Below are positions 9,404 through 35,866 of a stretch of DNA of 36,657 bases, one piece after another. The position numbers and the translations under genes were made by a program. The notes beneath the pieces were generated by a model. It was not told the origin of the DNA. It did no database searches and saw nothing but the letters and a program-made list of their open reading frames with translations. Where the stretch lies: assembly GCA_024275015.1 (NCBI GenBank), contig JAJRZW010000011.1:1-36657 (forward strand). Direction: 5' to 3'. Source of the stretch: Deltaproteobacteria bacterium (lineage in GTDB: Bacteria > Desulfobacterota > Desulfobulbia > Desulfobulbales > JAJRZW01). The stretch's first letter is position 1, and each line of letters starts with the position of its first letter.

Positions 9404-9424
9404 TGAAAAAGCCGACCTGGCTGT
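9404..9424 (-). terminator. Weak hairpin-T-tract behind the aas-type gene
   Basis: On the minus strand, immediately after the stop codon, AGCC-AGGTC-GGCT is followed by TTTTC. The 4-bp stem is short; the sequence GATTGAAAAAGCC on the + strand also resembles the arm of hairpin IV of the interspersed element, so this may be an element fragment doing duty as a terminator. Confidence 0.35.
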
Positions 9425-12400
9425 CATAACCCGGCCAGCATCTCCTTGAGCTGTTTGTAATCGGTCTTGCAGGTGCCCAGAACCGGAATGGTGTCGATAC
9501 TTATCAGGCGGCGGACATTGTGCAGGGCGGAAAGCCCTGCCTCGCGGATATATTGATTCACATTCTCCCTTTCCAGGGTGATGGTGCTGAAGAGGACTAT
9601 CTCCGGGTTCTCCTCGGTGGGGGTGGCCTCAACCGCCATGGTGGGGCCGTTATCATCGGCGGCGGGGAGATATTGATGCAGGGCCGCTTCAATGGCCGGC
9701 AGGGATATCATCTCGCCGCCTAACTTGATAAACCTTTTTTTGCGGCCGCAGAAGACCAGGTTGCCGTCCTCGTCTTCCCGGACAAAATCCCCGGTATCAT
9801 ACCATCTTTCGCCCTCAAAATCACTGAACCCCTTGTCCTGGTCACCGTTATAGTAGCCGGAAAATATATTGGGACCCCGCACCAGCAGAATTCCCCGCTC
9901 ACCCTTGTTCACCCGCCGCCTTTCTTCCGGATGGACAATCGCCCCCTTAATGGACGGCATGAGTCTGCCGATGGTTCCCGGTCGGGGATTGTCGACCCGG
10001 TTGATGCTGACCAGGGGTGAACACTCGGTGATTCCGTATCCTTCGCACAGAACCGCCCGCGGACAGATGTCGGCAAAGGCCTGATAGACATGTTCCGGGC
10101 ATTTTTCCGCGCCGCTGAACAGGAGCCGGATACTGAGCAGCTGTTCCCGTTCGGCGGCGTTGGCGATCCCGCCGAGGAAGGTGGGGGTGCCGATGAGCAT
10201 TGAGACTTTATAATGTTCGATCAGACGGGCCAGGGTCACCGATTCGGTGGGATTGGGGTGATATACCGTTTTCAACCCCAGGCATACGGGCATGACTACC
10301 GTGCCCACCAGCCCCAGGGAGTGGAAGGGCGGCAGCATCCCCAGAAGGCGGTCGGCGGCGTTCACCGCCATTATGTCGGTGAAGTCCCGCATGTTGGCAA
10401 TGATATTGGCGTGGCTCAGAGGCACGGCCTTGGGTCTTGATTCCGAGCCGCTGGTGAACAGGATGGCGGCTGTTTCCGCTACCCTGTTCGCGGTCGTTGA
10501 TCCCGGCCGGAAGCGTGCCCGCGCCAGGGCCATGACCTTGCGCCATAACGGAATACCGGCGGCGATTTCGTCAATAAAAAGCCATTTGTCAGGCAGGGCG
10601 CTGAGGTCCGTCCCCTGGGCGGAGAGTTTTTTCTTAAGGGCCGTGGCGGAGATAATATGGCTGACCCCGGCCACCGCGAGACAGTGTTTCATATTGCCGA
10701 TTCCCACGGTCCAGTTCATCATGACCGGAGTCTTACCGGCAAAAAGAACCGCCAGATAGACAATCACCGCGCTCACCGAGGCCGGCAGCATGATTCCGAT
10801 CCGCTCGGCTTCGATTTTTTCGATATACGGTCGCAGAACCATGATCGCGGTGAGCAGCTGGCGATAGCTTTTGGCTCCGGAGATCTGGTCGGCGATGATT
10901 ATCTCTCCGGGATAACGCCGGGCCTGGTGTAAAAAGGCGGCGCTAATGGTTTTTTCCACCGGAAAGACCAGGGACCTGGCCGGGCTGCCGGAAAACCATT
11001 TATTATTGACCGGGGTCAGGATGCGCTGGTTTTTTTCAAACACCTGGCCGCCGGCCGCGAGGATGCAGTCATCGACACCGGCCAGGGCGCTCATATCGTC
11101 AAGGGTCACCCCGAATTCGTTTTCCAGCCAGACGGCAAGGTCCATCAGGGCCAGACTGTCGATGCCCAGGTCATTGGCCAGGCGATCACTCCCCTTAACC
11201 GTGTCCCGGCCCGCCAACTCGGCGACCTTGGCGGTAACCATTTCCCGGATTGATTCCGGGATGTTTTCAACTGAGCCGAGGTAGGTCTTCTTTTCCGGTT
11301 CCGGCAATATCCGGGGGGTATTCCCCTGCCACCAATAATAAGGCACCCAGGTATTTGGCTGGGGGATGGCGTTACCATCCTGTTGAAAAACGGGGTGGTC
11401 GCGGCGCGTGTACGCGCGGCCTGATTTGTCGGTTTGAAAAATCCGGGACGGCTTTTCCAACGGGCTGTTATAGAATTCTTCCAGGTGGCGGTTGATTGCC
11501 CGGCGGTCGGGAAGGGTGCTCAGGTCGTCTTCGAGAAGATCAAGGGTAACCTGTCGCCGGGGGGTAAAAAAGATGCCGTTGACGAGAATGGTGCCAAGGT
11601 ATTTACTGATATTTTTGAACAGCGTCGGTTCCGTGCCGGTGGCAAAGCTGAAGCTGCTGCCCCAGAGGCCGCTGGTGCGAACCATAACCACCTTGACCCC
11701 GGTGGCGTTGTTGAGGATATATTCCACCCCGGAATTGCCGCCCAGGTCTTCCCGGGCGGAACGATATATGCGTCCGGCCGGATAGAGGACGATATTATCA
11801 CCCTGCTTCAGGGCGGTCACCACCTCGGTCATGGCCTGTTTGATTCCGCTCCTGCTGTCACGGCCGTTACGATGCAGGTCAGGGATCATGATCGGATTTA
11901 TCCGCTTCAGCGCCAGACGGGCCACGGGGTTTTTCCCTTGGTCAAGATCAACCAGGGGCCGGGGCCTGAACTTGCCGTAAAGCTCGGTCAGGCAGATTAC
12001 CGGATCAATCAGGGCCGGATGATTGGGGAGAAAGATAATCCCCCCGGCATGCGTGGCCGGAATTTTTTCCATCCCCCTGACTACAATGTGATAACGCAGG
12101 CGCAGGGCCAGGCGCAGGAGACGATGCAGAATCGGCATCCCCACCCTGGCATATACCAGCCCGGCACAGACAAGGGCAAAACCGCCCAGCCCGGCCATGG
12201 CCGATGCCGGGCTCATCAGGCTGATCAGGCTCGAAAAAATTGGTCCGGCCAACAGTATCCCGACAAAGGTACAGAAATTGGCGGTGGCCAGCACCCTGCC
12301 CTTGTCCTTGTCCGCCGGCCGGACCTGAAGGAAACTGGTCACCGGGATCAGGAATACTCCTCCGGCTATGCCGGTAAAAACCAGGTTGGCCGATAACCAT

Positions 12401-13377
12401 GGGAACCTCCAGGAGAGGGGTAGCAGCGGGGTAGCCCCGGCCAGGATCAGTCCCGCCGCCATCCCCGCCATGGCGGGCAGCATTGGACGGAACCACCTGT
12501 CCATCACCGTTATCCGGGCGGCGATGACAGAGCCGACGCATATACCAATCATTAACGATACCGGCAGCAGGCTGGTAACCGTCTTGCTGAATCCCAATTG
12601 TTCAATTCCCAGGGTGTTGATGACCAGAACGGCAATTGAGGCGATAAAGTAAAAATAACTGTCAGCGATAATGGCCCAGAAAAGCTGACGGTCGGACCGG
12701 GTATGGAGAAAATTTTCCACCGAGCGGATCGGCCCCAACCAGGGAAACGGTTTTTCCGGATTGGCGGCCGGACGGCTGTAAACCCCGAAAGCGGCAAAAA
12801 AACCAAGCACGGCGACCACAACCACCACCCCGGCCACAAGGACGGTGCCAAAGGGGATCTCAAGCGGCATCCAGTTCTGATCAAGCGAAATCCCGGCGGT
12901 GGCTATTCCGGCGAGGATGGCCAGGGTGGTCATCAGCTTAAGAATAGCGTTGGCCTTGGGAACATAACTGCCGGGGTACAGTTCGGGGATGGAACCATTA
13001 AGGGCGGGACTGAAAAGCGCCGACTGCATCCCCATCAAAAACAACATCGCCAGAATACAGGCCCAATTGCCGCTGATAATCCCGATCGCGCCAATGAGCA
13101 TGGCCACCAGTTCAAGCCCCTTGGCACCGATAACCACCTTTTTTTTGGGAAAGCGATCGGCAAGCCAGCCGGCACAGGCTGAAAAAAGCAGAAAGGGAAG
13201 GGCGAAAAGCACCGTGGCCGGACCCTGTAATTTGCTCAGGCCCGCCGAAACCGCAAGCAGGAGCACCGCCTGTTTGAAGTAATTATCATTGAACACTCCC
13301 AGGCAATAGGTGGCCGCCATGGCGATAAATTTAGCCCGCCCCGCCCTGATCAGCTTTACCTCGTTATCCTCTGTCAT
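9424..13377 (-). CDS. aas: Four-domain phospholipid recycling fusion: LplT-like MFS / PlsC acyltransferase / ACP / acyl-ACP synthetase
   Basis: The start at 13377 (MTEDNEVK) follows AGAGGA; the open frame upstream to 13512 is only the palindromic element B. The product has 1317 residues. Residues 1-415 are a 12-helix MFS transporter resembling lysophospholipid flippase LplT. About 425-640 is a PlsC-type acyltransferase with NHPALID (452-458) and YPAGRIYRS (about 532-540), in which Glu of the usual EGR/EGT motif is Ala. About 700-785 is an acyl carrier domain with LGIDSL, Ser741 being the likely phosphopantetheine site. About 805-1317 is an AMP-forming acyl-ACP synthetase with LFTSGSESRPKA (973-984) and WYDTGDFVRED. 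Together these would import, activate and reacylate lysophospholipids at the inner membrane. Residues about 637-669 come from an inserted palindromic element between PlsC and ACP. Confidence 0.85.
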   Translation of the reverse strand: MTEDNEVKLIRAGRAKFIAMAATYCLGVFNDNYFKQAVLLLAVSAGLSKLQGPATVLFALPFLLFSACAGWLADRFPKKKVVIGAKGLELVAMLIGAIGIISGNWACILAMLFLMGMQSALFSPALNGSIPELYPGSYVPKANAILKLMTTLAILAGIATAGISLDQNWMPLEIPFGTVLVAGVVVVVAVLGFFAAFGVYSRPAANPEKPFPWLGPIRSVENFLHTRSDRQLFWAIIADSYFYFIASIAVLVINTLGIEQLGFSKTVTSLLPVSLMIGICVGSVIAARITVMDRWFRPMLPAMAGMAAGLILAGATPLLPLSWRFPWLSANLVFTGIAGGVFLIPVTSFLQVRPADKDKGRVLATANFCTFVGILLAGPIFSSLISLMSPASAMAGLGGFALVCAGLVYARVGMPILHRLLRLALRLRYHIVVRGMEKIPATHAGGIIFLPNHPALIDPVICLTELYGKFRPRPLVDLDQGKNPVARLALKRINPIMIPDLHRNGRDSRSGIKQAMTEVVTALKQGDNIVLYPAGRIYRSAREDLGGNSGVEYILNNATGVKVVMVRTSGLWGSSFSFATGTEPTLFKNISKYLGTILVNGIFFTPRRQVTLDLLEDDLSTLPDRRAINRHLEEFYNSPLEKPSRIFQTDKSGRAYTRRDHPVFQQDGNAIPQPNTWVPYYWWQGNTPRILPEPEKKTYLGSVENIPESIREMVTAKVAELAGRDTVKGSDRLANDLGIDSLALMDLAVWLENEFGVTLDDMSALAGVDDCILAAGGQVFEKNQRILTPVNNKWFSGSPARSLVFPVEKTISAAFLHQARRYPGEIIIADQISGAKSYRQLLTAIMVLRPYIEKIEAERIGIMLPASVSAVIVYLAVLFAGKTPVMMNWTVGIGNMKHCLAVAGVSHIISATALKKKLSAQGTDLSALPDKWLFIDEIAAGIPLWRKVMALARARFRPGSTTANRVAETAAILFTSGSESRPKAVPLSHANIIANMRDFTDIMAVNAADRLLGMLPPFHSLGLVGTVVMPVCLGLKTVYHPNPTESVTLARLIEHYKVSMLIGTPTFLGGIANAAEREQLLSIRLLFSGAEKCPEHVYQAFADICPRAVLCEGYGITECSPLVSINRVDNPRPGTIGRLMPSIKGAIVHPEERRRVNKGERGILLVRGPNIFSGYYNGDQDKGFSDFEGERWYDTGDFVREDEDGNLVFCGRKKRFIKLGGEMISLPAIEAALHQYLPAADDNGPTMAVEATPTEENPEIVLFSTITLERENVNQYIREAGLSALHNVRRLISIDTIPVLGTCKTDYKQLKEMLAGL
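11371..11470 (+). repeat. Palindromic element inserted in frame in the aas-type gene (copy D)
   Basis: A 100-bp shortened copy. The left end (GTTACCATCCTGTTGAAAAAC) matches the copy A terminus with a few changes, the GGTCGCGG-type spacer is conserved, and the right end is CCAACGGGCTGTTA. It contains an own hairpin GCGCGT-GT-ACGCGC. On the gene's coding strand it is read without interruption as about 33 residues including LEKPSRIFQ and RRDHPVFQ. The element sits in the linker between the acyltransferase and ACP domains. Confidence 0.78.
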
Positions 13378-13390
13378 TATCGGGTTCCTC

Positions 13391-13548
13391 TTAACAGACT
13401 GTTGAAAAAGCCGTTCTGGCTTTTTTAACAGTCTGTTGGCCAAAACAAGTTCCGGCCAACATCTCGATTTTATTGGATTTTTTAAATCCAATAAAATCGG
13501 CGGTGCGTCCATGCACCGCGACCAGTCCGTTTTTCAACGGACTCTTAA
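13391..13548 (-). repeat. Composite palindromic interspersed element, copy B
   Basis: About 158 bp in the opposite orientation to copy A. Left end TTAACAGACTGTTGAAAAAGCC, right end GTCCGTTTTTCAACGGACTCTTAA. Hairpin II is a perfect 16-bp stem, 13465-13480 with 13484-13499. Hairpin III is the TTGGCC...GGCCAA pair. It lies between the aas-type gene and the phosphohexomutase gene (both minus strand), and creates a spurious 45-codon N-terminal extension of the former. Confidence 0.88.
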
Positions 13549-18435: not shown

Positions 18436-19323
18436 ATGAGCGCGGAAATCATCAGCGGGACTGAGATCTCCAAGGCCATCAAGGACGAGTTGAAGGTCGA
18501 GGTCACCGATCTCAAGGAGAAGCACGGTGTTGTTCCCGGGCTGGTTACCATTCTGGTGGGTGAAAATCCTGCTTCCCAGTCCTATGTCGCGGCCAAGAAC
18601 AAGACCGCCCATGCCCTTGGCATCCATTCCGAACAGGTGACCCTGCCCGAAGACACCACTGAGGCCGATCTCCTTGCCCTGGTCGACAAGTGTAATATGG
18701 ATGACAAAATCAACGGTATCCTGGTGCAGCTGCCCCTGCCAAAGCATATCGACGAGGCCAAGATCCTTTACGCCATTGATCCCGATAAGGATGTTGACGG
18801 TTTTCATCCGGTAAACGTCGGCAAGATGGTGCTCGGGGAGCAGTGTTTCCTCCCCTGTACTCCCCACGGTATTCTCGAACTCCTTGAGCGCAGCGGAGTC
18901 GAGACCAGCGGCAAGGAGGTGGTGATTCTCGGCCGCAGCAATATTGTCGGCAAGCCCATCGCCAACCTCATGCTGCAGAAGCGTCACAGCGGCAACGCTA
19001 CCGTAACCCTGTGCCATACCCGGACCAAAGACACCGATTTTCATACCAGAAGAGCTGATATTATTATCGCCGCGGTCGGCGTCCCTAATCTGGTCAAGGC
19101 CGATCAGGTTAAGGACGGGGTGGTGATAATCGACGTCGGGGTCAACCGCATCGGCAAGAGCAAAAACGGTAAGGCCATATTGGCCGGTGATGTCGATTTT
19201 GACTCAGTCAGGGAAAAGGCTGCCAAAATAACCCCGGTTCCCGGCGGGGTCGGGCCGATGACCATTACCATGTTGATGAAAAATACCGTTCAGGCCGCGA
19301 AACAGGCCGCCGGACTGGAATAG
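18436..19323 (+). CDS. folD: Bifunctional 5,10-methylene-THF dehydrogenase / methenyl-THF cyclohydrolase
   Basis: FolD carries out two steps of the methyl branch of the Wood-Ljungdahl pathway: methenyl-THF formation from 10-formyl-THF and its reduction to methylene-THF. The 295-residue protein shows YVAAKNK with the catalytic Lys56, VQLPLPKHID, the nucleotide-binding GRSNIVGKPIANLM and the C-terminal PVPGGVGPMT. All are hallmark FolD motifs, and the length is normal. It is the first gene of the C1 block, 44 bases before cooS, which makes a catabolic or autotrophic role more likely than housekeeping folate metabolism alone. Formyl-THF synthetase is not in the window. Confidence 0.95.
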   Translation: MSAEIISGTEISKAIKDELKVEVTDLKEKHGVVPGLVTILVGENPASQSYVAAKNKTAHALGIHSEQVTLPEDTTEADLLALVDKCNMDDKINGILVQLPLPKHIDEAKILYAIDPDKDVDGFHPVNVGKMVLGEQCFLPCTPHGILELLERSGVETSGKEVVILGRSNIVGKPIANLMLQKRHSGNATVTLCHTRTKDTDFHTRRADIIIAAVGVPNLVKADQVKDGVVIIDVGVNRIGKSKNGKAILAGDVDFDSVREKAAKITPVPGGVGPMTITMLMKNTVQAAKQAAGLE

Positions 19324-21407: not shown

Positions 21408-23972
21408 ATGAAATCGGGTAGCAACCTTGAAAAAATACTCACATCGGGCCAGTTCGCGGTAACCGGCGAACTCGGTCCACCCAAGAACGCCGATCCCGAA
21501 GTGGTAAGAAAAAAGGCCCGGCAGATCAAGGGGCATGTGGACGCGGTCAACATCACCGATTGTCAGACCGCTATCGTCCGCATGAGTTCCATTGCCGCCG
21601 GGCTTATCGCCCACAGTGAAGGGGTGGAACCGGTCATCCAGATGACCTGCCGTGACCGCAACCGTATCGGGATGCAGAGCGATATCCTTGGTGCCGGTGC
21701 CCTGGGGTTGAAGAATCTCCTCTGTCTCACCGGTGATCATCAGAAATTCGGCAACCACCCCGGCTCCAAGGGCGTGTTCGACATGGACTCGATCCAGCTC
21801 CTCGGTATGGCCCGGGATATGCGGGACGGAAAGAAATTTCAATGCGGTGAGGAGATCAAAAACAACGAGCCCCGTCTCTTTCTTGGCTGCGCCGCTAATC
21901 CCTTTGCCGGTCCGCCTGATTTCCGCGCCCGCCGTCTGGCGAAAAAGGCAGCCAACGGCGCGGATTTCTGTCAGACCCAGATCGTCTATAACCTTGAGAA
22001 ATTTTCCCGTTTCATGGAACAGGTGCGGGAATTGGGTCTGGATGAAAAAATTTATATCCTCGCCGGGGTGACGCCGCCGAAATCTCTCGGCATGGCCCGG
22101 TACATGAAAAAATTCGTTCCCGGCCTCGATGTTACCGATGATGTTATTTCCCGAATGAAGGACGCCCGCGACCAGGAAGACGAGGGGATAAATATATGTG
22201 TTGACGTCATCAATCAGGTCCGGGAGATCAAAGGGGTCGCCGGGGTCCATGTGATGGCGATTGAGTGGGAAAGCGCGGTTCCGGAGATCGTCAGCCGCGC
22301 CGGTCTTGATGATCGTCCGGTCTGCGAGGTCGAAATTGCGGCAGTGGCCCCGGGTGAAGCGATAACTGTCAGATCTGATGCCGACGCCCTGGCCTCGGCC
22401 CGGGCCGAGGCCGAACGGCTGATCGCCGCCGCCCGTGACAAGGCGGCAGAGATCAGCCGCGGCGAACTTACGTCTACAGATTTAGAAAATATAGAAACCT
22501 GTGATAGTGGAGAAGATGAGATGAACGAGAAGGAACGTCAGCTGGCGCTTGAGTCTGTCCGGCAGGGACTTGACGCCTTGAAAAAGGCCTTCGGCCTCTC
22601 CGATGATCAATTCGACGCCCTGGCCAAATTCGCCGGGGCCGAGGCGGTGTTGCGGCGGGAACCGGTTCTTCCCGGAACCGTGGCTCCGTCCACGCCTGCT
22701 GCCCCGGCGGTAAAAGTTGCCCCGGTGGTTCCTGCGACTCCGGTGGCCGCTCCCGCAGCTAACGCCGGAAAGGCGGCTGAGGCGAAAAAGGCTGAAGTGA
22801 CGAAAAAGGCCGCCGAGTCGAATGCGGATGAGGAGACAAAAAAGGCGGCTGAGGCGAAAAAGGCAGAAGCGGCAAAGAAGGCTACCGAAGTCAGAAAGGC
22901 GAAAGAGGTGCAAGCGGCCAAGACTGCGGAGACAGGGAAAGCCGTCCCGGCCGTCAAGGCCAGACCCGCTGCCGCTGTCAATGCCTATGAATTAAAGGCC
23001 GAAACTACTCCGCTTGCCGAAAGGGCGGCCAAGGTTCCGGAAAACGGCTACAAGCAGATCTATAGCGGCGAGATCCGCGAGGTTACCCTTCCGGCTCCTG
23101 GCGGCAATCTGGCTGCCGGCGGCGCCAAGAGTCTGCCGTTTCATCTCTTTGAAGGCGAACACGCCAATAAACCGATGATTGCCATGGATATCCTTGATCT
23201 CAATCCCGAGGAGTGGCCCGAGACCCTGAGGCGTCACTTTGACGGCGTCCTTGACAATCCGGTGGCCTGGGCGGAAAAATGCGTTAACGATTATAACGCC
23301 GATGCCATCTGTCTGTCGATGGTCAGCACCGATCCCAACGGCATGAACCGCTCCTCCTCCGATGCTGCCAAAATCGCGACCGAGGTCATCAAAGCCGTTG
23401 ATGTCCCGGTGATTCTCTGGGGCTGCGGCAACGGCGACAAGGATACCGAGACCCTGCGGGAGGTAACGGCGATGGTCGGCGAGCGCAAGGTCTGCCTCGC
23501 ACCTCTTTCCGATGCCAATTACAAGGCCATCGGCGCCACCGCCATGGCCTTCGGGCACCCGGTGGTCGCGGCATCGCCCATTGATGTCAACCTTGCCAAG
23601 CAGCTCAATATCCTCCTTGAGAACCTGGGGATGCAGCTTGACTCCGTGCTCATTGATCCCTCCATCGGCGCCCTCGGTTACGGCATTGAGTATTCCTACT
23701 CGGTCATGGAGCGGATTCGTATCGCCGCCCTGACCCAGAAGGATGAGAAGTTGCAGGTGCCGATCATCTGTAATCTAGGCCGTGAGGTCTGGAAGGCCAA
23801 AGAGGTCCGCCTTGACAGCGACGACATGATAGGTGACCAGGAACGACGCGGGGTGTTGATGGAAGCAATCACCGCCAGCTGTATGTTGATGGCCGGCGGT
23901 GAGGTAATGATCATGCGTCACCCGCAGGCGATCAGTCTTACCCGGGCCCTGATCAACGGCCTGATGGACTAA
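21408..23972 (+). CDS. metF-acsD: Fusion of methylene-THF reductase (MetF) and corrinoid protein small subunit (AcsD/CdhD)
   Basis: One open frame of 854 residues. Residues 1-300 are a MetF-type TIM barrel (FAVTGELGPPK, VQIT-like NITDCQTA, LCLTGDH, GADFCQTQIVYN, HVMAIEWES), reducing methylene-THF to methyl-THF. About 300-371 is a helical Ala/Glu-rich tail. Residues 372-854 match AcsD, small subunit of the corrinoid iron-sulfur protein: a short helical region, an Ala/Lys/Pro-rich linker (425-525) and a TIM barrel (MIAMDILDLNPEEWPE, SMVSTDPNGMN, LIDPSIGALGYGIEYSYS). The junction contains an in-frame ATG at 22521 preceded by GGAG, so AcsD may also be made separately. Either a true fusion or an ancestral two-gene arrangement merged by an indel. 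The two domains act consecutively: methyl-THF then methyl-corrinoid, although the methyltransferase AcsE is missing. Confidence 0.85.
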   Translation: MKSGSNLEKILTSGQFAVTGELGPPKNADPEVVRKKARQIKGHVDAVNITDCQTAIVRMSSIAAGLIAHSEGVEPVIQMTCRDRNRIGMQSDILGAGALGLKNLLCLTGDHQKFGNHPGSKGVFDMDSIQLLGMARDMRDGKKFQCGEEIKNNEPRLFLGCAANPFAGPPDFRARRLAKKAANGADFCQTQIVYNLEKFSRFMEQVRELGLDEKIYILAGVTPPKSLGMARYMKKFVPGLDVTDDVISRMKDARDQEDEGINICVDVINQVREIKGVAGVHVMAIEWESAVPEIVSRAGLDDRPVCEVEIAAVAPGEAITVRSDADALASARAEAERLIAAARDKAAEISRGELTSTDLENIETCDSGEDEMNEKERQLALESVRQGLDALKKAFGLSDDQFDALAKFAGAEAVLRREPVLPGTVAPSTPAAPAVKVAPVVPATPVAAPAANAGKAAEAKKAEVTKKAAESNADEETKKAAEAKKAEAAKKATEVRKAKEVQAAKTAETGKAVPAVKARPAAAVNAYELKAETTPLAERAAKVPENGYKQIYSGEIREVTLPAPGGNLAAGGAKSLPFHLFEGEHANKPMIAMDILDLNPEEWPETLRRHFDGVLDNPVAWAEKCVNDYNADAICLSMVSTDPNGMNRSSSDAAKIATEVIKAVDVPVILWGCGNGDKDTETLREVTAMVGERKVCLAPLSDANYKAIGATAMAFGHPVVAASPIDVNLAKQLNILLENLGMQLDSVLIDPSIGALGYGIEYSYSVMERIRIAALTQKDEKLQVPIICNLGREVWKAKEVRLDSDDMIGDQERRGVLMEAITASCMLMAGGEVMIMRHPQAISLTRALINGLMD
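22508..22523 (+). promoter_or_regulatory. Internal ribosome-binding site and start at the MetF-AcsD junction
   Basis: GTGGAGAAGATGAG precedes ATG at 22521, in frame with both halves. The surrounding 40 bases are AT-rich and contain TAG at 22483 and 22492 in the +1 frame and TGA/TAG at 22502-22507 in the +2 frame, as in a normal intergenic spacer. This suggests AcsD initiation here and a recent loss of the metF stop. Confidence 0.5.
22769..22864 (+). repeat. Direct repeat coding for the Ala/Lys-rich linker of AcsD
   Basis: An identical 24-bp unit (KAAEAKKA-coding) occurs at 22769-22792 and 22841-22864, 72 bp apart, within a stretch of Ala-Lys-Glu codons. The linker probably forms a flexible or charged helical tether between the AcsD N-terminal helix region and its barrel; it is a likely hot spot for slippage. 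Confidence 0.7.
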
Positions 23973-24023: not shown

Positions 24024-26228
24024 ATGTCGAAAATAATCTGTTCCGCCGCCATCCGAGGAGCCCATAAAATCCTTGACATGGCTGAAGAAAAATATGAAGC
24101 AGCCGTCAGGAAATACGGCGACGAGCATGAGGTCGGCTTTCCCAACACCGCCTATTTCCTCCCGGTGATCTACTCGATGCTGGGGGCCAAGGTTGAAAAA
24201 ATCGGTGACATGAAGGATATCTTTGCCGAATGCCGCAAGCTGATGCCGTCCGAGGTCAGTGAGCATAACTGGCTGCCGTATCTCGCCCCGGCGCTTGACG
24301 CCGGCATGGCGACTTTCTTTGCCGAGGAGATGTACGAGGCCATCCGTTACCTCGACACCCCGGACTACTACACCAAGACCGAGGATCCCACTGACAGCAA
24401 TATCTGGCTTGGGGCTGCCGACGATGTCATCTTCCGTAAACGCGGGGTTGAATTTGTCGACGGCACCGCCCCCGGTTTTGCCGCCATTCTAGGGGCGCCT
24501 CCTGACAAGGAAACCGCGAGCAAGATCGCCCTTGAACTACAGGAGAAAAATCTTTACATCTTCATGCACGATGCCTCTGACGGGGTCAGGATGGCCGATC
24601 AACTGGTGGACGCCGATGTCCAGGTGGGCTGGAATACCCGGCTTGTCCCCTTTGGGCCCGACTACACCTCGGTGGTATTCGCCATGGGTTTCGCCTGCCG
24701 GGTGGCGCTGGCCTTCGGCGGAATCAAACCCGGTGATTATAAGGGCAATCTCATTTACAACAAAGACCGGACCTTCGCCTTTGCCATGGCCCTGGGACCG
24801 GTATCCGACGAGTGGTACGCCAATGCCGCCGGCGCCATCAACTGGGGCTTTCCGACCATATCCGACTGGGATATCCCCGAGGTCCTGCCCACTGGTATCT
24901 GTACCTACGAGCATGTGGTCAGCAATATTCCCCACGATGAGATCGTTCATAAGGCCATCGAGGTTCGCGGCCTCAAGGTCTCGATCACCAAAATCGATAT
25001 CCCCATGTCCTTCGGCCCCGCCTTTGAGGGTGAGCGGGTCAGGAAGGACGACCTGTTCATGGAGTGCGGCGGCGGCCGCACCAGCGGGGTGGAAGTCCTG
25101 ATCTCCAAAGACCTCTCCGAGGTTGAGGACGGCCTGATCACTCTTGAGGGTCCGGATATCGCCGATATAGAGCAGGGACAGAATCTGCCCCTCGGAATCC
25201 TGGTCGAGGTCGCCGGCCGTGAGATGCAGTCCGACTTCGAACCCATCCTTGAACGCCAGTTCCATCACCTGATCAACTATATTCAGGGGATCATGCACAT
25301 GGGACAGCGGAATATAATGTGGGTCCGGATCGGCAAGGCCGCGGTGGAAAAGGGATTCTCCTTTAAACACTTCGGCAAAGTTCTCCACGGCAAGCTCCAC
25401 CAGGAGTTCGGTGCCATTGTCGACAAGATTCAGGTCAAGATCTATACCGAATCAGACAAGGTCGAAAAGGTTATGGATCTGGCCCGCGAGGTCTATACCG
25501 AGCGCGATAAGCGTCTTGGTTCCATGACAGATGAAACCGAAGATGTTTTTTATTCATGCACCCTGTGCCAGTCTTTCGCCCCCAGTCATGTCTGTATCAT
25601 CACCCCGGAGCGGATCGGCATGTGCGGTGCCTATAACTGGCTTGACGGCAAGGCCAGTTATCAGATCAACCCCACCGGCCCCAACCAGCCGATCGAGAAG
25701 GGCGAGTGTCTTGATGAAAAACTCGGGGTTTTCAAGGGGATTAATGACTTTGTCGGTCAGGCGTCCCGCGGCGCGGTCACCGATCTTGCATGCTATTCGC
25801 TGATGAACAGTCCCATGACCGCCTGCGGCTGTTTCGAGGCCATCGCCGCGATGCTGCCCCAGTGTAATGGGATCATGGTTGTCAACCGTGACTTTCGCGG
25901 CATGACCCCCTCGGGAATGAAGTTTACCTCGCTGGCCGGGATGGCCGGCGGCGGCGCCCAGACCCCGGGATTCATGGGGGTAAGTAAGCATTTTCTCACC
26001 AGCAGCAAGCTCTTCATGGCCGAGGGTGGCCTCAAGAGGGTGGTATGGTTGCCGAAGATGCTCAAGGAAGAACTGGCCGATAAACTAAAGGAGCGCTGCG
26101 AGGAGATCGGGATGCCGGAATTCTTCGACATGATCGCCACCGAGGAGAACGGCACCACCGAAGAAGAGATCATGGCCTTTCTCAAGGAGAAAGGCCATCC
26201 GGCCCTGAGTATGGAAGCGGCGGTCTGA
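24024..26228 (+). CDS. acsB: Acetyl-CoA synthase, A-cluster subunit
   Basis: AcsB joins a methyl group from the corrinoid protein, CO from CODH and CoA to make acetyl-CoA. The 734-residue protein preserves the A-cluster ligand pattern exactly: Cys512, Cys515, Cys524 and Cys534 for the [4Fe-4S] cubane and Cys601-Gly602-Cys603 for the distal nickel, spacing identical to the Moorella enzyme with an offset of six. The full N-terminal domain (CODH-interacting region) is present, so this is the long bacterial form rather than the short archaeal CdhC. AAGGAG lies 9 bases before the start. It is in the cooS-acsD-acsB-acsC order. Confidence 0.96.
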   Translation: MSKIICSAAIRGAHKILDMAEEKYEAAVRKYGDEHEVGFPNTAYFLPVIYSMLGAKVEKIGDMKDIFAECRKLMPSEVSEHNWLPYLAPALDAGMATFFAEEMYEAIRYLDTPDYYTKTEDPTDSNIWLGAADDVIFRKRGVEFVDGTAPGFAAILGAPPDKETASKIALELQEKNLYIFMHDASDGVRMADQLVDADVQVGWNTRLVPFGPDYTSVVFAMGFACRVALAFGGIKPGDYKGNLIYNKDRTFAFAMALGPVSDEWYANAAGAINWGFPTISDWDIPEVLPTGICTYEHVVSNIPHDEIVHKAIEVRGLKVSITKIDIPMSFGPAFEGERVRKDDLFMECGGGRTSGVEVLISKDLSEVEDGLITLEGPDIADIEQGQNLPLGILVEVAGREMQSDFEPILERQFHHLINYIQGIMHMGQRNIMWVRIGKAAVEKGFSFKHFGKVLHGKLHQEFGAIVDKIQVKIYTESDKVEKVMDLAREVYTERDKRLGSMTDETEDVFYSCTLCQSFAPSHVCIITPERIGMCGAYNWLDGKASYQINPTGPNQPIEKGECLDEKLGVFKGINDFVGQASRGAVTDLACYSLMNSPMTACGCFEAIAAMLPQCNGIMVVNRDFRGMTPSGMKFTSLAGMAGGGAQTPGFMGVSKHFLTSSKLFMAEGGLKRVVWLPKMLKEELADKLKERCEEIGMPEFFDMIATEENGTTEEEIMAFLKEKGHPALSMEAAV

Positions 26229-26285: not shown

Positions 26286-27644
26286 ATGGCTCTTACTGGT
26301 ATTCAGATCCTGAAGATGCTCCCCAAGAAGAACTGCGGCGAGTGCTCCATTCCCACCTGTCTTGCCTTTGCTATGAAGGTCGCGGCCGGGCAGGCAGAGA
26401 TAGGCGAGTGTCCCTACGTCAGCGACGAGATCAAGGAGCAGATAGGTGAGGCCAGCGCCCCGCCGATCCGGACCATCAAATTAGGCAGCAGCGACGAGGC
26501 GGCAATGACCATTGGCGGTGAGACCTGTCTTTATCGTCATGAAAAACGCTTCGAAAATCCCACCGGTATCGGGGTTTTGGTTGCGACCGACATGAGTGAC
26601 GCTGACATCGACGGTCGGATCGAGCGTTTCAACAAGCTTCGTTACGAGCGGGTCGGGGTGTTGATGAAGGCCGACTGCATCGCGATAAAAGACGGTAAAA
26701 ACGATTCGGCATCATTTACGGCCCTGACCGAAAAGGTGCTCAAGGGTGCGGCCGACGCCAAAATCATCCTCATGAGTGATACCGCCGCCAACCTCGCCGA
26801 CGCCGCCAGGGCCTGCGGCGATCGCAAACCGTTGCTCTATGCTGCCACCAACGCCAATGCCGATGAGATGAGCAAGGTCGCCAGGGATCTCGATTGTCCT
26901 CTCACCGTAAGGGGGGTAAACCTTGACGACACCGTGGCCTTAAGTGATAAACTCATCGCCGCCGGTCACAAGGATCTGGCCCTCGACACCGGGGCCCGGA
27001 CCATCAGGGCCGCCTTTGAGGACAACGTTGTCGCCCGTAAGGCCGCGGTAACCAGGAAGTTCAAGCCGCTGGGTTTTTCGACCATCAATTTCCCCTGCGA
27101 GATGACCGATGATCCTCTTCTTGAGGCGATGATCGCCTCGGTGATGATCGCTAAATACGCCGGTATCGTCATCCTCTCCGATCTCCAGGGCGACATCCTA
27201 TTCCCCCTGCTGCTGGAAAGGCTGAATATCTTCACCGATCCGCAGCGTCCGATGGTGGTTCAGGAAGATGTTTACAATATAAATGGTCCGGGTGAGGATT
27301 CCCCGGTCCTGATTACCTGCAACTTTTCCCTGACCTACTTCATCGTCTCCGGTGAGATCGAGGGGAGCAAGGTCCCGAGCTGGCTGCTGATCAAAGACAC
27401 CGAGGGGCTGTCGGTCCTTACTGCCTGGGCCGCCGGCAAATTCGGTGCCGACCTTATTGCCCAGTTCATGAAGAAGAGCGGCATCGAGGACAAGGTAAAG
27501 CACCGGGAACTCATTATCCCCGGCTACCTTGCCTCGATGAAGGGAGAGCTTGAAGAGGAGCTTCCAGGGTGGAATATTATCATCGGTCCCCGTGAGGCCG
27601 GACATCTTCCCGCCTTCCTCAAGGAATGGAAGCCCGCGGCCTGA
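26286..27644 (+). CDS. acsC: Corrinoid iron-sulfur protein large subunit
   Basis: AcsC/CdhE carries the [4Fe-4S] cluster and helps bind cobamide; with AcsD it transfers the methyl group to AcsB. The 452-residue protein begins with GIQILKMLPKKNCGECSIPTCLAF, giving Cys17, Cys20, Cys25 and Cys42, the CX2CX4CX16C cluster pattern of this family that keeps the low-potential cluster for reductive activation. The C-terminal TIM barrel region (VITCNFSLTYFIVSGEIE, HLPAFLKEW) is the cobamide-contact end. The start at 26286 follows GGAGGAT. Normal length. Confidence 0.95.
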   Translation: MALTGIQILKMLPKKNCGECSIPTCLAFAMKVAAGQAEIGECPYVSDEIKEQIGEASAPPIRTIKLGSSDEAAMTIGGETCLYRHEKRFENPTGIGVLVATDMSDADIDGRIERFNKLRYERVGVLMKADCIAIKDGKNDSASFTALTEKVLKGAADAKIILMSDTAANLADAARACGDRKPLLYAATNANADEMSKVARDLDCPLTVRGVNLDDTVALSDKLIAAGHKDLALDTGARTIRAAFEDNVVARKAAVTRKFKPLGFSTINFPCEMTDDPLLEAMIASVMIAKYAGIVILSDLQGDILFPLLLERLNIFTDPQRPMVVQEDVYNINGPGEDSPVLITCNFSLTYFIVSGEIEGSKVPSWLLIKDTEGLSVLTAWAAGKFGADLIAQFMKKSGIEDKVKHRELIIPGYLASMKGELEEELPGWNIIIGPREAGHLPAFLKEWKPAA

Positions 27645-27737: not shown

Positions 27738-30700
27738 ATGACTATCATTATCGACGGCAGGAAGATCCGGGCTCGTGCCGGTGACACCATTCTCGAAGCC
27801 GCCAGAAAGACGGGAATAGAAATCCCGTCCATGTGCAGCCTTAACGTCAGAAATTCCCAGGTGCCCTGTGGCCTCTGCGTGGTTGAGGTCAAAGGGCGGG
27901 ACGGTCTGTTGCGGGCCTGCGACACGGTGACGGAAGAGGGGATGACCGTCATTACCCGCAGCGAGGCCATTGCCGCTTATCGTAAAAAGCAGCTCAGTAA
28001 CATGGCCCGGGACCATTTCGGCGACTGCAAGGCCCCCTGTAATCTCACCTGTCCGGGACAGATAAATGTCCAGGGATATATTGCCCACGTGGCCAAGGGA
28101 GAATACGAGGAAGCGTTGCGTCTGGTGATGGAGCGCAACCCCTTTCCCTTTTCAGTGGGTCGGGTCTGTCCCCGTTTCTGCGAGACCAGGTGCCGCCGGA
28201 TTCTCGTTGACGAACCGGTATCGATAAATCATTTGAAGCGGTTCGTCGCTGACTGGTGCATGAGCCGCAAGATCAACCTCCGGATCAGCAAGGCCCCTGC
28301 CAGCGGTAAAAAGGTGGCAGTTGTCGGCGGTGGTCCTTCCGGACTGACCGCTGCCTGGTTTCTTGCCCGTAAGGGACACGAGGTCACGGTATTCGAGGCC
28401 GAGGACAAGCTTGGAGGCATGCTCCGTTACGGTCTCCCGGAGTACAAGATCCCCCGTGATGTTCTTGACTATGAAATAAAGACCATCATCAGGATGGGAA
28501 TTTCGGTACGTCTGAACCAGAGATGGGGCCGGGACTTTGATCTCGTAGACCTTCAGAACCAGGGACACGACGCGATCCTGCTTACCATTGGTTCACCCGC
28601 TGCCGACAACATTGATGTTCCCGGCAGCGCCAATCCCGGGGTGATCAGCGCCATTGACTGCCTCCGGGAAATAAATACCGGCAAGGCCCGTAATTACGGG
28701 AGCAGTGTCGCCATATTCGGCGGTAACAATATGGCGATGGAGACGGCCCGTTCTCTCCTTCGGCAAGGAGTAGACGAGGTGACAGTGATCTACCCCCGTT
28801 CGGTGACCGAGATGCCGGCCAATCAACGTAATATCCACGAGGCGGAAAAAGAGGGGGTACAGTTCCTCACCGCCGCCTCGCCGGTGCAGATATCCCAGGT
28901 CGAAGACGGTCTTGAGGTTGAGTTGATCCGGATGCGCCTGGGCGAACCTGATGCCCGGGGTACCCGTCATCCCGAGGCGGTTCCCGGTTCAAGCAATATC
29001 ATTCATGTTGACACCGTGATCCATTCCCTGGGGCAGTCGGCCTTTGCCGACCGGCCGGAAGGGAACCTGGAGGGGGAACTTGAGATCACCCCGAAAAACA
29101 ATATCAAGGCCAACCCCCGGACTTCGCTGACCAATATCCCCGGGATTTACGCGGCCGGCGATTCCACCAGCGGCCCGCGTTCGGTAATCCAGGCGGTAGT
29201 CTCGGCGCGGCGTGCGGCGGAAAATATTCATCTCCAGCTTGACGATACCGCGGTCAAGGTTCCGGAGAACCGGTTTAACTTTACCCGCGGTCGTTCCTTT
29301 GACGACGTTGCCCTTACCAATTTTGAGGGAATCAAGGTTAAATTACGGGAAAAGATGCCGGAGCGGGCGCCTGAAATCGCGGCCCAGGATTTTGACGAGG
29401 TCAGGTTGGGGTTCACCGAAAAGATGGCCCGTCGCGAGGCGGAAAGATGTCTTTCCTGTGGCTGCAACGCTTACGGTCGTTGTGATTTTAAACGCGAATG
29501 TATCGACAACGGCGTTGATCCCAACAAGACCGGGCAGCCAAAGGCGCCGCTCTACAGTCGCGACTACTCCCATCCGGCCATTGTCGTTGACCTCAATAAA
29601 TGCGTGTTCTGCCAGCGTTGTTTTAATGCCTGTGAGTATGACGGGCTTGAAATCAAGGCGGGAAGTCGTGCCGATAACGGCCGTCCCCGGGATATCTCAT
29701 TCCGCTTCACTGATAAATGCGTCAGTTGCGGCAAATGCGTTGACCACTGTTCCACCGGGGCCCTGTCGAAAAAAGAGGCCATTGTCCCGGTGGTGAACGA
29801 AGAGATCCGCGACGTCCGTTCCACCTGCCCCTATTGCGGCGCCGGTTGCCAGATTATCCTCAAGGTCAAGAATAACACGATCATGGAGATCACCGCCGAT
29901 CCGGACCAGGCCCCGAACTTTGGCGCTCTATGCGTCAAGGGCCGTTTCGGATTCAATTTCGTCCAGCAGCCGGACCGGCTTACCACCCCACTTATCCGTC
30001 GCGGCGGTCAATTGGTAGAGGCAAGTTGGGACGAGGCCCTGGACGAGGTGGCCAGACGTTTTTTTGACTTAAAGGCCATGTACGGTCCCGACTCTATTGC
30101 CGGGTTCAGTTGCGCCCGCTGTACCAACGAAGAAAATTTCCTGATGCAGAAGTTCATGCGCACCGCGATCGGTACTAATAATATCGATCACTGCGCCCGA
30201 CTCTGACACGCTCCCACGGTGGCCAGTCTGGCCATCTCGTTCGGCAGCGGGGCGATGACCAATTCCATCGCCGACATCAAGGACTGCGAAGTGATCTTCA
30301 TGATCGGCAGCAATGCCGACACCGGTCATCCAACCATCGGTCTCAGGCTGCATCAGGCCTGTGACCGCGGGGCGAAGCTGATCGTGGTGGATCCCCGTCA
30401 GACCGCGTTCGCGCGCAGGGCCGACCACTGGCTGTCGATAAACCCCGGCACCGACGTGGCCCTGCTCAACGCCATGTGCCAGGTGATTATCGAAGAGGGG
30501 ATTTATGACAAAAAATTCGTCGCCGAGCGTACCGAAGACTTTGACGACCTGAAAAAGACGGTCAAAAAATACAGCCCGGAGTACGCCGGACAGATAACCG
30601 GTATCGCTGCCGACGAGATCCGGGCGGTTGCCCGCCTCTACGCGAGTCCGGGTAAAAACAGCGCGATCTTCTACGGCATGGGCCTGGCCCATCACGCCAC

Positions 30701-32126: not shown

Positions 32127-35100
32127 ATGGCAAAAAAGAGTGTGAAACGAGAGGGGGCGGTCATGATCCTCGGCGGCGGGGTCGCGGGACTCCAGGCCGC
32201 CCTTGATCTGACCGAACTGGGCTTCTATGTCTACCTGGTCGAAAAAAGCGCCGCCATCGGCGGGGCCATGGCCCAATTAGACAAGACCTTCCCCACCAAC
32301 GATTGTTCGCTCTGAATACTCGCGCCCAAGCTGGTGGAGGCCGGTCGGTCTCCCAATATCGAGATTCTGAGTAACACCGATCTTCTTTCCCTTGAAGGGA
32401 AAAAGGGTGACTTTACCGCCAAGGTTCGCATCCGGCCGCGCTATATCGACGCCGACAAGTGTACCGCCTGCGGTCTGTGTACCAAGTATTGCCCCAAACA
32501 CCTGAGCGATTCCTATAACGAGGGGCTCAATCTTACCCGTCCGATTCATATCGACTACCCCCAGGCGGTGCCGGCGACATATTTTATCGATCCCTCGACC
32601 TGTATGCATCTGCAACATGGCACCTGCAAGATCTGCGTCCCGGTCTGCCGCAGCCGGGCCATTGATTTTTCCCAGAAGGCGAAAAAACGCAGTATCGGGG
32701 TCGGGGCGGTGATTGTTGCTCCGGGTTTCGGCCGGGTGCCGGATGAGGCCCTGGAAAAGTACGGTTACGGAAGCCATCCGGACGTGGTCACCAGTATCGA
32801 GTTCGAGCGACTTTTGAATCCCTCGGGACCGTTTCAGGGCGAGGTAAGGTGCCTTTCCGACAAGCGTCATCCAAAAAAAATCGCCTTTATCCAGTGCGTC
32901 GGTTCCCGTGACCTCGGCTGCGATAATGGCTACTGCTCCTCGGTCTGCTGCATGTACGCGATCAAGGAGGCGATGGTGGCCAAGGAACATGATCCCGACT
33001 GCGAGATCACCGTCTATTACATGGACCTGCGGACCCAGGGCAAGGATTTCGACGCCGCCCGCACCCGGGCCGAGGAACAGTTCGGGATCAAGTTCGTTCG
33101 TTCGGAGGTCGCGGATGTCATGAACTGGGGCGACAAGGGCCTCAAACTCACCTATTCGACCCTGGACGGAGCGCATCACTTTGAACAGCACGACATGGTG
33201 GTTCTTTCGGTTGGTCTCGACGCCCCGGCGGACGCGAAAAAGATTGCCGATATCACCGGAATCGCGCTTAATCGTTATGACTTTGCCGAAACTTCCACCT
33301 TCGCCCCCCTTGAGACCGGGGTAAAGGGGATAACCGTGGCCGGCGCCTTTCAGGGGCCCAAGGATATCCCCGAGAGCGTCACCCAGTCAAGCGCCGCCGC
33401 CGGTATGGCCGCGGGGCTGATCAAGAGCCAGCGCAACAAGGGGGTCGTGGTCAAGAATTATCCGGCCGAGGTGGCGATTGAGGACGAAGAACCGCGCATC
33501 GGCGTCTTTGTCTGCCATTGCGGGATCAATATCGGCGGCATCGTCGATGTTCCCGGAGTCGATAACTCGGTGGAAGGAATGGAAGGGGTAGTCTATCATA
33601 CCCAAAACCTCTATTCCTGTTCCCAGGACGCTCAGGAGGTCCTAAAGGACAAAATACGCGAGTATAAACTGAACCGGGTGGTCATTGCCGCCTGTTCGCC
33701 GCGAACCCATGAGCCCCTGTTTCAGGAGACCATGCGCGACGCCGGACTTAATCGTTGTCTAATCGAGATGGTCAATATCCGCGACCAATGTTCCTGGGTC
33801 CACGCCAACGAGCCCGATGCCGCCACCGACAAGTCAAAAGACCTGGTGCGGATGGGAGTGGCCAAGGCGAGGCTGATAAAACCGTTGCCGGAACAAACGG
33901 TGCCGGTAACCCGCAGCGGCTTGGTGATCGGCGGCGGCATCGCCGGGATGACCGCGGCCCTGACCCTGGCGGAACAGGGATATTCCTGCGTGATTGTTGA
34001 AAAAAACGCCAGGCTCGGCGGTCATCTGTTGGACAGCCGTTATACCCTCCACGGGGAAAATACCGCTGATCTGGTCAAAAGGGTGACAGATCAGGTGAAA
34101 AAGAACAGGAACATCACCGTAATGACCGCAAGCGAACTGGTCACCACCAACGGTTTTGTCGGTAATTTCTCTTCAATCATCAAAAGCGGTAGCGGCAAGA
34201 AGGCCGGGGAGCATACCGTTGACCACGGGGTGATCATCGTTGCCACCGGCGGCAGCTCCCATAAACCGGCAAAAATTCTGGGGAAAAAACCGCCGAAGGG
34301 TACCAGGATCATGACCCAGCTTGAGCTTGAGCAGCGTCTTGGCGGCAAGGGCAAGAACCGCGCCCCCGGCTCGGTGGTCATGATCCAGTGTGCCGGTTCC
34401 CGTGGCGACGACCTTAATTATTGCAGCAAGACCTGCTGTATCGAGGCGGTAAAGAACGCGCTCAAGATCAAGGAGATCAATCCCGCCTCCCAGGTCATCG
34501 TCCTTTACCGTGACCTGCGTACCTACGGCTTTACCGAGGATTATTACCGCGAGGCCCGGGAAAAGGGGGTTATGTTTATCCCTTATTCCCTCGATAAACC
34601 GCCGCTGATCAAGGTCGCGACCCGTAAGGTCGAGGTGAGCTATGACGACCCGATCCTTAATGAAAAGGTCACCGTCAGCCCTGATCTTGTTGCCCTGTCC
34701 GTGGGGATTGTTCCTGACAGCACCGAAGAACTGAGCCAGATGCTCAAGATCCCGGTCAACGCCAATAGTTTCTTCCTTGAGGCCCATGTCAAGCTGCGGC
34801 CGGTGGAGATGCCGGTATCAGGGGTATTTATATGCGGCCTGGCTCATTCGCCCAAGCCCCTTGACGAGATAATCGTCCAGGCCCAGGCCGCGGCGGCCAA
34901 GGCGACCATGCCGCTGGTAAAGGGAGAGGTCTCGGTTGAGCCCATTGTCTCCCATGTAACCGAAGACACCTGTATCGGCTGCGGTATCTGTGCCAGTCTG
35001 TGTCCTTACCAGGCAATTGAGATGATCAAGGTCGACAAGAAGAGAAAGGCGCGGACCATTGTCGCCTCCTGTAAGGCCTGCGGTATCTGTGCCTCCCATT

Positions 35101-35254: not shown

Positions 35255-35866
35255 ATGAGTCAGGAAGAGTTCAACCCGAAAATTCTGGGGTTTCTGTGCA
35301 ATTGGTGTTGCTATGCCGCGGCTGATGCCGCCGGGGTATCACGATTCCAGTATCCCCCCAGTCTGCGGACGGTGAGGGTAATGTGTACCGGCCGTATTGA
35401 TCCCCTCTTTGTCCTCAAGGGCTTTGCCGCCGGTGCCGCCGGGATCTTTGCCGGTGGCTGACAACTTGGTGAATGTCATTACCAGGTTGGTAATTACGAT
35501 GCCATGGGAGTTAACGCCCTGATCGCCAAAATCCTGACCGAGGTCGGGATAAATCCCGAAAGATATAACCTCAAATGGGCCTCGGCGGCCGAGGCCCCGA
35601 GATTTGTCAAGCTGATCACCGAGTTTACCGCCAAGGTCAAAGATTTAGGGCCATTGGGGGAGGATGAGGGGATAAGCGGAGAAGAGGCAAGGGCCCGGAT
35701 CGACAAGGCCATTGAACTGGTCAGCGACCGCAAGCTCAGGATCGGTTTCGGCAACCTCACCAAGAATCTGCGTAAGGAGTTGGCTGAAAACGGCCTTGAT
35801 GACAACAAGATCGCCGCCGCGGTTGAGGAAAAACTGACCAGGACCATCAGCGCCGGACTTGGCTGA
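35255..35866 (+). CDS. mvhD: Selenocysteine-containing MvhD/VhuD-like delta subunit
   Basis: 203 residues with UGA at 35459-35461 read as Sec69. The sequence has the [2Fe-2S] MvhD hallmarks: CNWCCYAAAD (Cys15, Cys18, Cys19), RVMCTGRIDP (Cys44) and GG-U-QLGECHYQVGN (Sec69, Cys74), where the family normally has GGCHxGDCHY. The C-terminal half is helical. MvhD mediates electron transfer between HdrA and hydrogenase or formate dehydrogenase; no hydrogenase gene is present here, so FdhA is the likely donor. It has the clear ribosome-binding site AAAGGAG six bases before ATG. Treated as intact because both halves align to one family member. Confidence 0.93.
35459..35494 (+). promoter_or_regulatory. 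bSECIS element of mvhD
   Basis: 16 bases after UGA, ATTACC (35478-35483), loop AGGTT (35484-35488) and GGTAAT (35489-35494) form a perfect 6-bp stem. The AGGUU loop closely resembles the AGGUCU loop of the E. coli fdhF element. Confidence 0.85.

What the first reader, a model, noticed from the sequence alone, without database searches (positions are those of the whole stretch)
21408..23972. Uninterrupted MetF-AcsD fusion at the join of the methyl and carbonyl branches
An 854-residue frame links methylene-THF reductase to the corrinoid protein small subunit. The junction looks like an operon spacer: AT-rich, stops in both other frames, and GGAG plus ATG at 22521 in frame. A fusion would tether the methyl-THF producer to the methyl-corrinoid carrier, a new form of channeling. 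The retained internal start would allow both a fused and a free AcsD. A one-base sequencing error that hides a stop is the main alternative.
Basis: partly seen in the sequence, partly recalled or inferred. Interest (0 to 1): 0.75.

Follow-up and report, generated by a model that had tools for sequence, protein, structure and literature searches.

The report
Nested fusion joining two carbon-fixation branches
In this bacterium and more than a hundred of its relatives one unbroken gene encodes two carbon-fixation proteins (MetF and AcsD) in a row and keeps, in its middle, conserved start signals for the second one, so the cell would likely make both a tethered and a free copy, a possible way to steer a one-carbon unit from one half of the pathway to the other.

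Summary
Window 21408-23972 is one open frame of 854 codons: methylene-THF reductase (MetF, residues 1-304), spacer, a two-helix segment, an Ala/Lys/Glu/Pro-rich linker, and the corrinoid protein small subunit (AcsD, 546-854). It is not a sequencing error: in a search of 257 genomes of the same order (the one with Desulfurivibrio), 114 listed rows show the fusion in one frame. It also occurs in other families of the phylum, including Thermosulfurimonas, and both domain trees put the fused forms in one clade. Its Gly codon is GGA in 37 of 37 aligned genes (14% elsewhere) and is the only invariant site of 146 fourfold columns. The ATG matches the start of a separate acsD in the one relative with a truly split gene. 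Best reading: one gene, two proteins, a 91.5-kDa MetF-AcsD tether and a 51.4-kDa free AcsD. Use of the internal start and any channelling are inferred; no expression data were available. My searches found no description of the fusion or of the nested start.

The parts
21408..23972 (+). MetF-AcsD fusion gene, 854 aa, predicted 91.5 kDa
   Evidence: Open frame; Pfam domains; same frame in 114 listed rows of the order
21408..22319 (+). MetF domain, residues 1-304
   Evidence: PF02219 at 7-299; barrel in the model; Foldseek matches to MTHFR structures
22320..22508 (+). Linker 1, residues 305-367, variable, with a predicted helix at 325-351
   Evidence: Mean agreement 0.45 in the order; low model confidence at 311-323 and 352-372
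22509..22512 (+). GGAG, Shine-Dalgarno-like site 8 nt before the internal ATG
   Evidence: GGA at the Gly368 codon in 37 of 37; GGAG kept in 114 of 114 listed fusions
22521..22523 (+). Internal ATG (residue 372), predicted start of free AcsD
   Evidence: ATG in 37 of 37; corresponds to the start of a separate acsD in L083
22521..23972 (+). Nested frame for free AcsD, 483 aa, predicted 51.4 kDa
   Evidence: its use is inferred
22521..22655 (+). Two-helix segment, residues 372-416
   Evidence: Helices 374-394 and 399-416 in the model; mean agreement 0.80 over 372-418; not seen in 18 unfused AcsD frames
22662..23042 (+). Linker 2, residues 419-545, rich in Ala, Lys, Glu and Pro
   Evidence: Composition and length range; pLDDT under 50 at 417-477 and 504-523
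23043..23972 (+). AcsD core, residues 546-854, and stop codon
   Evidence: PF03599; 4djd_D and 2h9a_B
18436..19323 (+). folD
   Evidence: PF00763 and PF02882
19368..21356 (+). CO dehydrogenase subunit (AcsA/CooS)
   Evidence: TIGR01702 over its cut-off; upstream of the fusion in 36 of 37 order loci
24024..26228 (+). acsB
   Evidence: NF040764 over its cut-off; directly downstream of the fusion in 64 of 64 loci
26286..27644 (+). acsC, corrinoid protein large subunit
   Evidence: NF003195 over its cut-off

Best explanation
The frame 21408-23972 is one uninterrupted gene for a MetF-AcsD fusion protein that also carries, in frame, a conserved GGAG and ATG (22509-22523) predicted to start a second, free AcsD protein, and the long form would likely hold the enzyme that makes methyl-THF next to the corrinoid protein that takes up the methyl group. 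Shown by sequence: the fusion, its wide conservation, one clade of fused forms in both domain trees, and constraint on the internal start at a synonymous site. Inferred: the internal start is used, giving a 51-kDa AcsD with the two-helix segment beside the 92-kDa fusion, in a ratio set by translation. Inferred: AcsD, long or short, pairs with AcsC, so that some corrinoid proteins hang on a flexible linker from MetF while others are free, and an AcsE-like methyltransferase encoded elsewhere (L096) moves the methyl group between them. The fusion probably arose once, by loss of the metF stop in a metF-acsD operon, and kept the ribosome site of acsD.
For: The fusion lies in one open frame of at least 839 aa in 114 rows listed for 257 order genomes and in 27 aligned fusions outside the order. 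GGAG-8 nt-ATG is present in 37 of 37 aligned genes and in 114 of 114 listed fusions: 110 by coordinates and four by reading loci (G028, G037, G033, G491). The Gly368 codon is GGA in 37 of 37, largest codon excess of 372 columns and only invariant one of 146 fourfold columns. Pairing with the anti-Shine-Dalgarno is -7.4 against -2.3 kcal/mol at 1066 other in-frame ATGs and -5.8 at the main start. The mRNA around it is open: -3.2 against a gene mean of -10.0 kcal/mol, and 32 of 37 genes lie above their own 80th percentile. The split relative L083 starts acsD at the matching place, MQNEKELLKIL. Trees. Two confident barrels joined by low-confidence linkers.
Against: There are no proteome, ribosome-profiling or biochemical data. 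In 24 of 37 genes at least one other in-frame ATG has as strong a Shine-Dalgarno pairing, so strength alone does not single the site out. Of 120 listed proteins five lack the Gly-Glu-x-x before the Met-Asn-Glu (P0006, P0012, P0077, P0109, P0117); in at least some of them the ribosome site may be weaker (their DNA was not seen). 16 of 27 fusions outside the order have no such start. Pattern matches with two mismatches also occur away from the fusion: eight such rows are listed. In the model the domains have no fixed arrangement (pTM 0.51), which shows neither contact nor channelling.
Confidence: 0.72

Rival explanations
1. Only the fusion protein is made; the conserved GGAG-ATG is a ribosome pause for the folding of MetF, or a peptide motif, and not a start.
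For: Lineages without the internal start keep the fusion, so the fused form must suffice there. Gly-Glu and Met-Asn-Glu are also conserved as residues.
Against: A peptide motif does not explain GGA in 37 of 37. A pause does not explain the fixed 8-nt distance to an ATG, the open mRNA, and the match to the start of the separate acsD in L083.
Confidence: 0.13
2. The short AcsD is the working product and the upstream fusion mainly serves to carry ribosomes to the internal start, an extreme form of translational coupling.
For: The internal site is on average stronger than the main start, -7.4 against -5.8 kcal/mol.
Against: Lineages without the internal start keep the fusion with an intact AcsD, so the fused AcsD works there. 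Coupling alone needs no long conserved frame around the start.
Confidence: 0.07
3. Both forms are made, but the fusion serves equal amounts, joint folding or assembly of a complex, and not transfer of the methyl group.
For: Nothing in the sequence shows channelling. The linkers change in length and composition between clades, and domain orientation is not fixed in the model.
Against: A free AcsD from the same gene would break equal amounts. The joined pair is the producer of methyl-THF and the end acceptor of its methyl group (pathway knowledge).
Confidence: 0.3
4. A one-base sequencing or assembly error hides the stop of metF.
For: AT-rich junction with stops in both other frames.
Against: The same frame in 114 listed rows of the order and in 27 aligned fusions elsewhere.
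Confidence: 0.01

Closest known systems
Corrinoid iron-sulfur protein small subunit AcsD (4djd_D, 2h9a_B, 9fzy_E)
   Same: Same barrel over about 290-305 residues; AcsC and AcsB are in the same cluster
   Different: Here joined behind MetF through about 240 residues that include a two-helix segment; the matched solved chains are 309-323 aa long
Methylene-THF reductase MetF (E. coli, Thermus; MetF of MetFV)
   Same: PF02219 over the whole model; Glu21, Asp110 and Gln189 are invariant in 23 aligned fusions and, as I recall, stand for E. coli Glu28, Asp120 and Gln183
   Different: Carries AcsD at its C-terminus; a MetV-like partner (PF12225) lies on another contig
MetFV-HdrABC-MvhD reductase (Moorella), named in PMC10553843 (passages)
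   Same: HdrA and an MvhD-like frame stand in the window; HdrC-, MvhD- and MetV-like frames stand together on own contig C17
   Different: MetF is tied to AcsD; no complex has been shown
CcmM58/CcmM35 of cyanobacteria (PMC7059596, introduction passage)
   Same: One gene, long form and a short form from an in-frame internal start; both are needed there
   Different: Unrelated proteins; a shell scaffold, not enzymes; here the short form is only predicted
Swinging-arm multienzymes (E2 of pyruvate dehydrogenase; recalled, no call)
   Same: A carrier domain on a long Ala/Pro-rich linker
   Different: Corrinoid carrier in place of lipoyl; oligomeric state here unknown

Membership tests
Methylene-THF reductase (MetF) | PF02219 domain over its gathering score | tested here: met
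   120 bits against 24, residues 7-299
Methylene-THF reductase (MetF) | NCBIfam fadh2 equivalog TIGR00676 over its cut-off | tested here: not met
   54.9 bits against 293.7: a MetF of another subtype, closer to NF006396 (217 bits, also under its cut-off)
Methylene-THF reductase (MetF) | Reduction of methylene-THF | not testable with these tools
   Needs an assay
Corrinoid protein small subunit (AcsD/CdhD) | PF03599 over its gathering score | tested here: met
   137.3 bits against 24.8; NF003376 363.1 against 280
Corrinoid protein small subunit (AcsD/CdhD) | NF040759 WLP_AcsD over its cut-off | tested here: not met
   298.7 against 430, a narrow exception-level model
Corrinoid protein small subunit (AcsD/CdhD) | Pairing with AcsC and corrinoid binding | not testable with these tools
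   acsC is present at 26286-27644
Nested in-frame gene with internal start (CcmM kind) | Conserved ribosome site and start codon inside the frame | tested here: met
   114 of 114 listed fusions of the order; synonymous constraint
Nested in-frame gene with internal start (CcmM kind) | Short product seen in cells | not testable with these tools
   No proteome or ribosome data here
MetFV-HdrABC-MvhD reductase | MetV, HdrA, HdrC and MvhD encoded with MetF | tested here: inconclusive
   HdrA and MvhD-like frames in the window, MetV-, HdrC- and MvhD-like frames on contig C17; HdrB was not sought and no link to the fusion is shown

The most novel reading that the evidence does not exclude
A single nested gene, inherited from an ancestor of the fused clade, makes a swinging-arm MetF-corrinoid carrier and a free corrinoid carrier in a ratio set by translation: a physical link between the methyl and carbonyl branches of the Wood-Ljungdahl pathway and a tunable hand-over of the methyl group in sulfur bacteria.
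Probability: 0.45. Interest if true: 0.85.

Novelty: new variant of a known kind. Interest (0 to 1): 0.72.

Why it matters
The two branches of the Wood-Ljungdahl pathway are usually drawn as separate enzymes that meet by diffusion of methyl-THF (general knowledge). A conserved covalent link between the last methyl-branch enzyme and the corrinoid carrier makes substrate hand-over in this pathway directly testable, and the nested start predicts a defined second product. It also matters for annotation: where one search prints a source's name, the gene is called either the acetyl-CoA synthase delta subunit or a methylenetetrahydrofolate reductase (or methionine synthase/reductase), never both activities, so surveys that expect one gene per step may miss one of the two.

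Tried and rejected
A sequencing error was rejected on relatives. Apparent breaks in L089 and L116 are runs of N. In-frame stops are listed within the matches of G528, G018 and G493; I looked only at G018 (L094), where the break lies in the AcsD part. Loci L093, L119, L128, L133 and L134 break inside MetF or AcsD, not at the start site. G048 of the same order has a separate AcsD of 525 aa without the two-helix segment and separate MetF frames: I take it for another lineage of the gene. A plasmid search gave 17 records, all under 60% identity and none covering 80% of the query; the best rows match only the MetF part.

Fusions with a match but without the motif: seven of 146 genomes (G001, G010, G033, G489, G491, G591, G627). 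G033 and G491 do hold GGAG-8-ATG. In G001, G010 and G489 the matches listed do not span the junction. G591 and G627 were not looked at. My script left out two rows that met its rule (G512, G490); one search adds them.

The set (23 of 23) was picked with an expression that includes the Met-Asn/Ala-Glu itself, so it could not show losses. One search lists the ten of 40 frames with MetF identity of 76% or more that it missed: L122, L123, L125, L127, L130 (long-linker fusions or a fragment of one), L119, L133 and L134 first pieces and L151 (fragments without the junction), and L144, which has the site.

Literature: ten searches; nine sought the fusion or an internal start, another the CcmM analogy. 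I saw the listings of all. Found passages only were read of PMC10553843, PMC12827605, PMC8780430, PMC7117923, PMC7059596, PMC10213532, PMC3584212 and PMC4975002. None described this fusion. In five of them (the first four and PMC10213532) the terms for fusion had no occurrence; in PMC3584212 'fusion' means His-tags; in PMC4975002 'gene fusion' stood in the reference list. The other listed papers were not opened. Most subscription papers are not in the library.

Full report
Observation. The frame at 21408-23972 is open for 854 codons. Pfam finds MTHFR at 7-299 and CdhD at 567-836. The neighbours are FolD, a CO dehydrogenase subunit, AcsB, AcsC, a formate dehydrogenase and HdrA.

Is it real? A protein search over 58 genomes gave a match in 56; 38 of the 58 have it in an open frame of 839 aa or more. 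In a search of 257 genomes of the order, 146 had a match at E 1e-130 or better. From that listing, which was cut short, I took the rows whose open frame was at least 839 aa without a stop in the match: 112 in the script and two it had left out, 114 in all; shorter or broken rows were dropped. One of the 114, G033, runs off its contig in the AcsD part. Outside the order 27 fusions were aligned. Named records with the fusion include Desulfurivibrio sp. AMeS2, Desulfocapsa MAGs and Thermosulfurimonas dismutans S95 (taxonomy). Contig lengths tie handles to names, for example G027 contig 30 (223,166 bases) to Desulfurivibrio sp. AMeS2, so the window's order holds Desulfurivibrio; its own species is not known to me. 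A one-base error cannot explain this.

Origin. Trees of the MetF domain (91 sequences) and of the AcsD domain (90) hold the fused forms in one clade (SH-like support 0.867 and 0.995; FastTree, midpoint root, no topology test; of the 80 named loci only nine were chosen for it). Split rows inside the clade are L089-L092, which are cut by contig ends or runs of N, and one true split, L083, from a genus (g61) that also holds fused genes. In L083 MetF stops just after its domain and acsD begins with MQNEKELLKIL, which corresponds to MNEKER at the internal ATG of the window. The 18 unfused AcsD frames printed show no such two-helix segment before the barrel. I infer one fusion, by loss of the metF stop, and one later fission.

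The internal start. In 37 of 37 aligned genes of the order the sequence is GGAG, eight bases, ATG. The Gly codon in it is GGA in all 37, while Gly codons over these genes are 14% GGA. Of 372 columns with a conserved residue it has the largest excess of one codon, and it is the only one of 146 fourfold columns without a third-base change. Pairing with the anti-Shine-Dalgarno is -7.4 kcal/mol on average, against -2.3 for 1066 other in-frame ATGs and -5.8 at the main start; yet in 24 of 37 genes at least one other ATG is as strong, so strength alone would not single it out. The mRNA there is open: -3.2 against a gene mean of -10.0 kcal/mol. Where residue 375 is Arg its codon is AGA in 14 of 14, against 9% AGA overall, as in A-rich start regions. 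A degenerate motif search with up to two mismatches found it in 141 of 257 genomes, with the backward control at 0 in the rows printed; eight listed rows lie away from the fusion, each with two mismatches. The motif lies inside 110 of the 114 fusions by coordinates, and each printed match begins with GGAG. The other four also keep GGAG-8-ATG (G028, G037, G033 and G491, read as L026, L022, L025 and L210), which makes 114 of 114. In named records 24 frames gave the same (23, L144), with the selection caveat told under Tried and rejected. Of 120 listed proteins (of 863 found) all have Met-Asn-Glu there and 115 have Gly-Glu-x-x before it. Outside the order 11 of 27 fusions have some in-frame start with a Shine-Dalgarno-like site near the place (the clearest are L032-L035, L057, L069, L070 and L072) and 16 have none.

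Anatomy. The model (mean pLDDT 76.3, pTM 0.51) has two barrels, a helix at 325-351, a helix pair at 374-416, and low confidence at 311-323, 352-372, 417-477 and 504-523. Foldseek finds CFeSP small subunits and MTHFRs. Mean agreement with the modal residue in the order is 0.87 for MetF, 0.45 for linker 1, 0.80 for the two-helix segment, 0.53 for linker 2 and 0.82 for AcsD; linker 2 is 37.5% Ala, 14% Lys, 13% Glu and 9% Pro and spans 105-165 residues. The frame is thus kept through stretches whose letters turn over, as expected of a spacer.

Mechanism. Shown: fusion, conservation, constraint on the start site. Predicted: two products of 91.5 and 51.4 kDa. Inferred: the long form holds MetF near the corrinoid carrier formed with AcsC, and the short form adds carriers that can leave. 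An AcsE-like protein (best NCBIfam matches are the CODH/ACS methyltransferase models, 184 and 183 bits, both under their cut-offs) lies near a RACo-type frame on another contig. MetV-, HdrC- and MvhD-like frames lie on a third, so MetF may also sit in an Hdr-linked reductase; this is not tested. AcsB follows the fusion directly in 64 of 64 loci, and the CO dehydrogenase gene precedes it in 36 of 37 order loci.

Known or new. The searches and passages listed under Tried and rejected did not mention this fusion. A 2026 study of the pathway's evolution in this phylum (PMC12827605, passages only) treats AcsD as a subunit of its own, and the text held has no word that begins with 'fus' or 'metF'. 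The nearest working analogue is CcmM, whose short form comes from an internal start (PMC7059596, introduction passage). I file this as a new variant: known enzymes, a new covalent arrangement, and a nested start.

Noticed in passing
30204-30206: In-frame TGA inside formate dehydrogenase (CARL-U-HAPTVASL), a selenocysteine candidate that splits the gene into two listed frames.
   Followed up: partly
32313-32315: In-frame TGA near the start of HdrA (NDCSL-U-ILAPKL, frame from 32127), another selenocysteine candidate; it hides the first part of the gene.
   Followed up: partly
35459-35461: In-frame TGA in an MvhD-like frame (FAGG-U-QLGEC), a third selenocysteine candidate in the same stretch.
   Followed up: partly
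L191 (own contig C17): A 516-aa frame matches both MTHFR and the MetV-type domain PF12225, next to HdrC-, MvhD- and MetV-like frames.
   Followed up: partly
L100 (own contig C46): A 358-aa frame matches the corrinoid end of the AcsC model (77.6 bits, positions 322-445); it may be an HgcA-type mercury methylation protein (name recalled).
   Followed up: no
L059-L073: In most of these long-linker fusions (about 1000-1110 aa frames) the two linkers are much longer and the internal start is missing.
   Followed up: partly
L193, L194: Two genomes of genus g61 carry shorter fusions (frames of 761 and 722 aa) on a long branch in the MetF tree (0.47), in the same genus as the split L083.
   Followed up: no
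9424-13512: One 1362-aa frame on the minus strand joins an MFS transporter, an acyltransferase, a carrier domain and an AMP-binding enzyme.
   Followed up: no
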